A stretch of DNA of 64,000 nt, taken from contig JAFGOB010000031.1 in NCBI GenBank assembly GCA_016926695.1, forward strand, positions 29,862-93,861. The letters are read 5' to 3'. This DNA is from Dehalococcoidales bacterium. Lineage in GTDB: Bacteria; Chloroflexota; Dehalococcoidia; Dehalococcoidales; UBA3254. Both the position numbers and the translations under genes were made by a program. Positions within the stretch are counted from its first letter, which is position 1. Every line of letters starts with the position of its first letter. This document shows positions 55,246 through 55,977 of the stretch, piece by piece. The notes under the pieces are model-generated. The model made no database searches and was not told the origin of the DNA. It saw only the letters and a list, made by a program, of their open reading frames with translations.

Positions 55246-55977
55246 TTATTTTGAAGCCGCTTCCAGGTAGGCCAGTACCAGGGGATGAGGGTTTTCCGCG
55301 GTGGAAGACACCTGGGGCAAAAATCCGGTAGCGATATAGTACCGGTGGCCGGGCAGCTCCACGATCCTGGCGCCGCCGGTCTCGCTTATGCCGCTTACCT
55401 TCAGTCCCGCCGTCTCCAGCTGTTCCCTGTACAGGGTATTCAACTCATAGTTGCAGTTGAAAGACTCCTCGATCTCCGTTTTTTGATAGATGCGGTGGGC
55501 CAGCGTTCCGGTAGATACCTTGATATTCAGTTTTCCCCATAATCGGGTGGTACCCTCAGGCCTGCTGTCCACCTGGCATGATGCCAGGATAAACAGGGGA
55601 ATGGCCGTATCCGGGTCTTCTTCCATGTGTCCCGCTTCGCTCAGACCTGCGACATTCCTGGCGTACTCTAACAGAGTATGTTGAAATCCCCCTCAGGTAG
55701 CGATAAAGGGTCGTCCCGATTCTCTGGCTGTACGGATGCCCCGTATAGCCCCGCTCATACTCCTGTAAGGGGAGCCGGGAGAGGCCCAGAAACAGTCCGC
55801 CTGCTTCAACTCACTATCTCCTTCTCCTGTTAAAAAGGAGGTAGTTGGAGTCCAGCGAATACTGGTCTCCAGCGAAAGCCTGGCGGCGGCGTGGCTAATT
55901 GCATCCATCGTCGCAAGATGTGACGATCGGCGGGGTTCATAATCACCTATAATCCCGATATCAACTTTTTTCTTCAT
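55246..55977 (-). CDS. CTP-synthase amidotransferase-like selenoprotein (UGA = Sec)
   Basis: 243-aa protein if TGA 55693-55695 is read as Sec95. The frame is otherwise continuous: both halves share one frame, 351 bases apart. Homologous to the glutaminase domain of CTP synthase: GIIGDYEPRRSSHLATMDAI, RPFIAT-U-GGFQHTLLEY, LNIKVSTGTLAHRIY, ELNTLYREQLE, VELPGHRYYIATGFLPQVSST, HPLVLAYLEAA. Sec replaces the nucleophile Cys. The catalytic FHPE reads FLPQ, so His and Glu are lost. A hairpin 19 bases after UGA has a UGUUA loop, and tRNA-Sec is at 48.6 kb. It overlaps glyS by 17 bases and precedes sbcD. I recall that similarly named seleno-families exist; no function known. Confidence 0.9.
55664..55695 (-). 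promoter_or_regulatory. UGA codon and candidate bacterial SECIS hairpin
   Basis: After UGA (55693-55695) and 14 bases, stem TACTC (55674-55678) / GAGTA (55664-55668) closes the loop TGTTA. UGA-to-loop distance is 19 bases, and a G is the second loop base. Both agree with published bacterial SECIS rules. Confidence 0.65.

What the first reader, a model, noticed from the sequence alone, without database searches (positions are those of the whole stretch)
55246..55977. Selenocysteine at the nucleophile of an amidotransferase-like protein whose His and Glu are lost
Seen: a single in-frame TGA, exactly where CTP synthase-type glutaminases have Cys (RPFIAT-U-GGFQ), with 148 codons in the same frame after it. 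The triad partner motif FHPE reads FLPQ. A hairpin in the SECIS distance range follows the UGA, and tRNA-Sec is encoded 7 kb away. Inference: this is a selenoprotein that no longer hydrolyses glutamine and uses the selenol for other chemistry (thiol/redox or electrophile detoxification). It is in an operon with glyS and sbcD.
Basis: partly seen in the sequence, partly recalled or inferred. Interest (0 to 1): 0.92.

Follow-up and report, generated by a model that had tools for sequence, protein, structure and literature searches.

The report
Selenoprotein on a CTP-synthase glutaminase fold

Summary
Confirmed: the minus-strand ORF 55977..55246 (243 aa) has one in-frame UGA exactly at the PyrG nucleophile Cys379. 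Selenocysteine is well supported: in 93 related sequences this codon is TGA (16) or TGT/TGC (77), nothing else; a hairpin 13-31 nt downstream has at least 7 of 8 pairs in 14/16 TGA genes against 1/77 Cys genes; all 15 searched host genomes of other TGA genes hold at least one Sec-machinery component. The family is already known: NCBIfam NF004836, deep-Sep 2025, a 2026 review. Loss of the triad His is not special to this gene: 0 of 201 family proteins have it, Sec or Cys. Not found in the text I searched: PyrG His469 is Cys in 201/201 and Glu418 is Cys in 196/201; a crystal-structure paper says the equivalent of His469 could swing next to the nucleophile. Best reading: a Sec/Cys redox (selenenylsulfide) protein on a glutaminase scaffold. 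Sec is near certain, loss of glutaminase activity likely, the redox pair plausible but untested. The window is probably from an uncultured Dehalococcoidales. New here: the mechanism hypothesis, the probable misnaming, and signs of old Sec with a Cys relic.

The parts
55246..55977 (-). Selenoprotein gene, 243 aa with Sec95; stand-alone relative of the CTP-synthase glutaminase domain (NF004836 family)
55693..55695 (-). In-frame TGA, Sec95 (E. coli PyrG C379 position)
   Evidence: TGA or TGT/TGC in 93 of 93 sequences
55662..55680 (-). SECIS-like hairpin CAUACUCU-GUU-AGAGUACG, 13-31 nt after the UGA; 7 of 8 pairs here
   Evidence: weak when folded alone
55576..55578 (-). Cys134 codon (PyrG E418 position), Cys in 196/201 of the family
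55453..55455 (-). Cys175 codon (PyrG H469 position), Cys in 201/201 of the family; proposed resolving Cys
55312..55320 (-). Codons of L220-P221-Q222, where PyrG has the triad His515-Pro-Glu517
48566..48660 (-). tRNA-Sec gene
55961..57439 (-). glyS ORF, overlaps the 5' end of the selenoprotein gene by 17 nt
53976..55223 (-). sbcD-like phosphoesterase ORF, 22 nt downstream
   Evidence: PF00149; the name sbcD is by eye

Best explanation
The gene encodes a selenoprotein of the NF004836 family, a stand-alone descendant of the CTP-synthase glutaminase domain. Shown by comparison: UGA codes for Sec at the old nucleophile, and the family lacks the triad His. Likely (inferred): it is not a glutaminase, because it lacks the His-Glu dyad and mostly lacks the Arg residues that bind the ligand carboxylate and that are implicated in GTP binding. 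Proposed (inferred): Sec95 (or Cys95) works as a redox selenol/thiol on the nucleophile elbow, its low pKa replacing activation by His, and Cys175 at the PyrG His469 position resolves the selenenic or mixed-selenide intermediate as a Sec95-Cys175 selenenylsulfide; Cys134 may take part. Substrate and electron donor are unknown. The Sec form looks old in the family and has probably been replaced by Cys at least once.
Against: No biochemical data, and no model coordinates were available, so the Sec95-Cys175 distance was not measured; the T. brucei numbering was mapped by motif and spacing, not by an alignment run here. Glu at E472 is kept in 60/201, this window's protein among them. Residues that would serve an acyl-enzyme are kept (nucleophile, G352 in 185/201, Q383 in 200/201, E403 in 191/201), so a covalent acyl step is not excluded. 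New conserved His (H20 194/201, H100 163/201, H117 156/201) could act as a base. No conserved redox neighbour was found. Of the 201 proteins, 9 have W and 3 have G, E or S at the Sec position; I take W as TGA misread by gene callers, but could not see that DNA. The genome of the nearest DNA-level relative (G001 of L001) has tRNA-Sec but no SelA or SelB over cut-off and a sub-cut-off SelD match.
Confidence: 0.55

Rival explanations
1. Amidase, hydrolase or acyltransferase that keeps the covalent acyl-(seleno)cysteine step but uses another base (H20, H100 or H117) and another substrate than glutamine.
For: Nucleophile and the Gly352, Gln383 and Glu403 positions are kept (185, 200 and 191 of 201); new conserved His residues; fusion to a GNAT acetyltransferase in P0041 and P0047 and GNAT genes next to the member in L008, L009 and L014.
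Against: Sec gives little to an amide-hydrolysis step and is rare in hydrolases (recalled); the invariant Cys175 and near-invariant Cys134 are not explained. The three GNAT neighbours are all in one Bacillota clade of nine and GNATs are abundant genes.
Confidence: 0.2
2. Covalent trap or carrier: without His the gamma-glutamyl (seleno)ester is formed but not hydrolysed, and is passed to an acceptor.
For: A solved SpuA H221N mutant holds a glutamyl-thioester (entry title of 7d50; paper not read); loss of His with retained nucleophile matches that state.
Against: Carboxylate-binding Arg and His are mostly or wholly lost, so glutamine itself should bind poorly; no acceptor enzyme found.
Confidence: 0.1
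3. Pseudoenzyme or regulator (for example of CTP synthase), with residue 95 as a sensor thiol/selenol or a metal site made by residues 95, 134, 175 and His20.
For: Lost triad; two further Cys and one His invariant or nearly so.
Against: Conserved Sec/Cys exchange argues for chemistry at this atom; in 400 Chloroflexota genomes the gene is sporadic (at least 13) while 382 of 400 have a PyrG-type or family match, so most PyrG work without it.
Confidence: 0.13
4. The TGA is a true stop and the frame is a pseudogene or chance read-through.
For: The hairpin of the window copy is not stable beyond shuffles (z -0.64).
Against: Only TGA or Cys codons in 93 of 93 sequences, hairpin contrast, full-length relatives up to 74% identical, Sec machinery in genomes of relatives.
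Confidence: 0.02

Closest known systems
NCBIfam NF004836 'CTP synthase C-terminal region-related (seleno)protein'; deep-Sep 'Glutamine amidotransferase (COG0504, PyrG)' selenoprotein
   Same: Best family hit over the full length; Sec at the same GxUxG motif; listed as a selenoprotein in PMC12013277 Table 3 and PMC13188914 (passages seen). That the two names mean one family is the review's own table row.
   Different: The window protein scores 256.5 bits, just under the cut-off of 260. A find in the deep-Sep main text for triad, histidine, glutaminase and pseudoenzyme gave none; in the review 'CTP synthase' occurs once, in the table.
PyrG (CTP synthase) glutaminase domain
   Different: No synthase domain; no His515; E517 mostly Gln; R468/R470 mostly lost; H469 to Cys, E418 to Cys, Y305 to His, E499 to Arg.
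PuuD/SpuA class I gamma-glutamyl hydrolases
   Different: 16% identity in the structural alignment; much weaker match than CTP synthase; the SpuA H221N entry holds an acyl-enzyme (entry title only).
Sec-Cys redox selenoproteins in general (recalled)
   Same: Selenol with a possible resolving Cys.
   Different: Different fold; donor and substrate unknown here; pair not demonstrated.

Membership tests
NF004836 CTP synthase C-terminal region-related (seleno)protein | Score over the curated cut-off (260 bits) | tested here: inconclusive
   256.5 bits, 3.5 under; relatives lie on both sides of it: L001 282.9, L002 334.3, L010 274.7, L026 256.9, L094 221.8, L013 239.5, Klebsiella 336.9. Next family only 151 bits.
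NF004836 CTP synthase C-terminal region-related (seleno)protein | Placement in the same clade, apart from PyrG | tested here: met
   Family against PyrG split 100/100 in a 70-row tree.
NF004836 CTP synthase C-terminal region-related (seleno)protein | Sec/Cys at the nucleophile position with GxUxG motif | tested here: met
   AT-U-GG here (first motif position A, as in 43 of 201, G in 158); 93 of 93 sequences TGA or TGT/TGC
GATase domain (Pfam PF00117) | Score over the gathering cut-off | tested here: met
   32.9 bits against 22.8
Class I glutamine amidotransferase (functional glutaminase) | Cys-His-Glu catalytic triad | tested here: not met
   His position is Leu and Glu position is Gln here; none of 201 family proteins has the His, 24 have the Glu
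Class I glutamine amidotransferase (functional glutaminase) | Glutamine hydrolysis | not testable with these tools
   Needs an assay
CTP synthase PyrG | N-terminal synthase domain and GTP-site arginines | tested here: not met
   243 aa, glutaminase part only; TIGR00337 150.8 bits against cut-off 462.75; R468/R470 are N/N
Bacterial selenoprotein | SECIS-like hairpin just downstream of UGA | tested here: met
   Comparative: 14/16 against 1/77; not significant by single-sequence folding; covariation weak
Bacterial selenoprotein | Sec machinery in the same genome | tested here: inconclusive
   tRNA-Sec in the window; no genome held; selA/B/D not found in the window. In relatives all 15 genomes hold at least one component.
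Sec-Cys redox enzyme | Redox activity and a Sec-Cys bond | not testable with these tools
   Only the invariant Cys175 and its inferred position

The most novel reading that the evidence does not exclude
The whole family, Sec and Cys forms, is misnamed: it is a separate class of selenol/thiol redox enzyme built on a glutaminase scaffold, in which the residue that neighbours the PyrG nucleophile (His469) became an invariant resolving Cys as the triad His was lost. Selenocysteine came early, with one hairpin inherited across phyla, and Cys forms such as L013 are secondary and still carry a fossil SECIS.
Probability: 0.42. Interest if true: 0.7.

Novelty: new member of a known kind. Interest (0 to 1): 0.5.

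Why it matters
The selenoprotein itself is on record, but sources name many relatives 'CTP synthase' or 'glutamine amidotransferase' (name column). The sequence evidence says the glutaminase machinery is gone family-wide and a Cys pair has been gained. That turns an annotation into a testable enzyme question (which redox or electrophile reaction, with which donor), offers Cys members in culturable bacteria as easy test proteins, and gives a natural example of an amidotransferase fold converted to other chemistry with Sec/Cys exchange and a likely SECIS fossil.

Tried and rejected
Pseudogene or chance read-through: rejected. Conserved operon partner: clustering of 700 neighbour ORFs (up to five each side) of 80 loci found lineage-bound neighbours only (the largest cluster in 24 loci; it and the next largest clusters sit mainly in Acidobacteria), with nothing shared across the family; tblastn of 11 window neighbours against 110 loci (17 PyrG loci; 30 with under 4 kb) found glyS in L005 and ddl-like hits in L028 only. 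MsrA- and MsrB-like genes lie near the gene in 9 of 80 loci each, named by eye, all on the other strand; too lineage-bound to use. DUF523/DUF488 next to the Klebsiella copy recurred only as DUF488 in Enterobacter and a DUF523-like hit in L078. Domain fusions: among the 120 listed of 721 hits, besides full PyrG, only the GNAT fusions P0041/P0047 and P0150, a 396-aa protein with no second Pfam domain. Covariation in the hairpin: weak, 2 cells with changes on both sides, and 45 of 500 shuffles reach the score; the sequences are too alike. A covariance model (R1), searched on 52 sources, also hits Cys genes by sequence; the 16 TGA genes score 46.2-67.4 bits and Cys genes 18-46.8, L013 on top, so it separates the classes only in part. 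Promoter and terminator scan around the operon: counts above shuffles but nothing decisive. Other TGA-interrupted genes in the window: nothing convincing, but these scans have little power, as the first found not even the known gene and the second did not list it in its top 15. One Sec clade: rejected (p-AU 0.00077). The genome scan with the single protein found nothing and was repeated with an alignment. Papers: five searches aimed at this family or Sec amidotransferases (listings seen) showed no functional study of it; some searches looked for the deep-Sep paper and CTP-synthase structure papers.

Full report
OBSERVATION. The ORF lies on the minus strand, 55977..55246. Read with TGA as Sec it is 243 residues with one U at 95 and 148 residues after it. 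tRNA-Sec is at 48566-48660 (-). The glyS ORF overlaps the start by 17 nt and the sbcD ORF starts 22 nt after the stop. By the names on its GlyS relatives (P0235, 89% identical, a Dehalococcoidales MAG) the window is probably from an uncultured Dehalococcoidales.

FAMILY. NCBIfam NF004836, 'CTP synthase C-terminal region-related (seleno)protein', is the best match at 256.5 bits (cut-off 260; PyrG models 151 bits); Pfam GATase PF00117 is over its cut-off. The family is in print as a selenoprotein: deep-Sep (PMC12013277, passages seen) lists 'Glutamine amidotransferase (COG0504, PyrG)' in Table 3 with TGA- and Cys-containing homologues, and a 2026 review (PMC13188914; abstract, section 6 and one table passage seen) lists NF004836 with GxUxG, citing deep-Sep. 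A find in the deep-Sep main text for triad, histidine, glutaminase and pseudoenzyme gave none; supplements were not open to me.

SELENOCYSTEINE. With the window and 12 Chloroflexota loci (L082 dropped as a copy of L001) the count is TGA 16, Cys codons 77, other 0 of 93; L025 and L085 are one gene, so 92 are distinct. The hairpin 13-31 nt after the codon, consensus CAUACUCU-GUU-AGAGUAUG, has 8 pairs in 11, 7 in 3 and 4 in 2 of 16 TGA genes; among 77 Cys genes one has 7 and eight have 6. The loop starts with G in 15/16 against 25/77, and residue 103 is Leu (11) or Val (5) in TGA genes, Ile (63) or Leu (14) in Cys genes. By eye L094 has a 6-pair stem with a G-first loop in another register. Covariation is weak and the window copy is not unusually stable alone, so the case rests on the Sec/Cys contrast. 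Of the 120 relatives listed, 12 besides the window's own are 134-154 aa pieces covering only the part after the UGA, as expected of truncated gene calls (sequences).

MACHINERY. Of the 15 genomes that carry TGA genes (window excluded): tRNA-Sec over the gathering score in 11 of 12 and 2 of 3 (asked at E 1e-9); SelB over cut-off in 9 of 12 and 2 of 3. In six of them (G001, G006, G009, G256, G080, G119) SelA is over cut-off in 3 and split into two sub-cut-off pieces in G256; SelD is over cut-off in 5, each match with one TGA inside, as a Sec-containing SelD would show (not inspected). Each of the 15 has at least one component over cut-off; G001 has only tRNA-Sec (74.4 bits). Of 12 Cys genomes chosen out of 68, SelB is over cut-off in 5 and tRNA-Sec in 6, one of them borderline (48.1 bits against 47). 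The tRNA-Sec cut-off is not strict: 5 of 14 control genomes pass it.

TRIAD AND NEW CYSTEINES. In 201 family proteins (215-300 aa, of 231 fetched; the rest are fragments, fusions and PyrG) against 13 PyrG and E. coli PyrG: His515 position: His 0/201 (V 100, Q 72, L 22), 14/14 in PyrG. E517 position: Q 164, E 24. R468 position: R in 14; R470 position: R in 11. Kept: G352 185, Q383 200, E403 191, E465 201. Gained: Cys at H469 201/201, Cys at E418 196/201, His at Y305 194/201, Arg at E499 197/201. At the nucleophile: C 189, W 9, G 1, E 1, S 1. The window's own row carries C for U. W most simply reflects TGA read as Trp by gene callers (inference); none of 93 DNA sequences has TGG. At the DNA level one divergent locus, L093, lacks Cys175 by eye. 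Roles of Q383 and E403 are recalled, not from a call.

EVOLUTION. In a 95-row tree the Sec/Cys label needs 6 changes, in a careful 70-row tree (28 close relatives left out, 5 PyrG added as Cys) 5; Sec as one clade is rejected, p-AU 0.00077. Columns 95 and 100-105 were masked. TGA genes sit on several deep, mostly unresolved branches, and in Acidobacteria TGA genes are successive sisters of a Cys clade (99/89 and 89/84; L020 less sure). The same 19-nt hairpin occurs in L002, L010, L012, L020 and L077, whose titles name Deltaproteobacteria, Rokuibacteriota and Acidobacteriota. L013, a Cys gene beside the Acidobacteria TGA genes, keeps 7 of 8 pairs. This favours one old Sec origin with later Cys replacement. 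Against it: the tree cannot give direction, PyrG has Cys, and most Cys genes have Ile at 103 as E. coli PyrG does. Horizontal transfer of TGA genes is an alternative.

CONTEXT. The gene is sporadic: in 400 Chloroflexota genomes at least 13 have a match clearly above the PyrG matches (217 bits or more against 184 or less; at most 7 candidates per genome were scored, so some may be missed). No neighbour is conserved across the family. A Cys copy occurs in Klebsiella and other plasmid-collection records. The domain link is to GNAT acetyltransferases: fusions P0041 and P0047, and GNAT genes beside the member in L008, L009 and L014, three of nine loci of one Bacillota clade.

VERDICT. A confirmed member of a known selenoprotein family; its name as a glutamine amidotransferase is probably wrong. 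The likeliest mechanism is Sec/Cys redox chemistry with Cys175 as partner (about 0.55), with acyl-transfer, trapping or regulatory roles as rivals.

Noticed in passing
L013:7637-8356: Cys (TGC) member that keeps 7 of 8 pairs of the SECIS-like hairpin with a G-first loop: a likely fossil of a lost Sec.
   Followed up: partly
P0041, P0047 (412 aa); L008, L009, L014: Fusion of a GNAT acetyltransferase domain to a Cys member of the family; GNAT genes also lie next to members in three Bacillota loci.
   Followed up: partly
L005:1569-3113: Glycyl-tRNA synthetase gene 62 nt downstream of the Cys member in a Bathyarchaeota contig, the only other glyS neighbour among 110 loci searched.
   Followed up: partly
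window 59092-60657 (-): Myo-inositol-1-phosphate synthase-like protein with an N-terminal YdaS-like stretch (23.8 bits, below Pfam's cut-off of 30) in the same ORF.
   Followed up: no
window 16855-16997 (+): Molybdenum/tungsten cofactor riboswitch (RF01055, 51.4 bits), upstream of a molybdate-type transporter by eye.
   Followed up: no
window 10264-11298 (-): NrpR-type nitrogen regulator (PF01995) near glutamine synthetase and two ammonium transporters by eye.
   Followed up: no
L113:4003-5693: Klebsiella Cys member beside DUF488 and DUF523 genes; DUF523 is another of the new selenoprotein families in the deep-Sep paper.
   Followed up: partly
G001 (genome of L001): The genome of the nearest DNA-level relative has tRNA-Sec but no SelA or SelB over cut-off and only a sub-cut-off SelD match; incomplete assembly or divergent machinery.
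   Followed up: partly
P0012, P0016, P0116: Single metagenomic proteins with G, E or S at the Sec/Cys position; by eye P0016 also lacks Cys134.
   Followed up: no
L093 (unnamed Chloroflexota genome G381): Divergent member with GTCLGF and no Cys at 175, perhaps an intermediate or a different subfamily (by eye).
   Followed up: no
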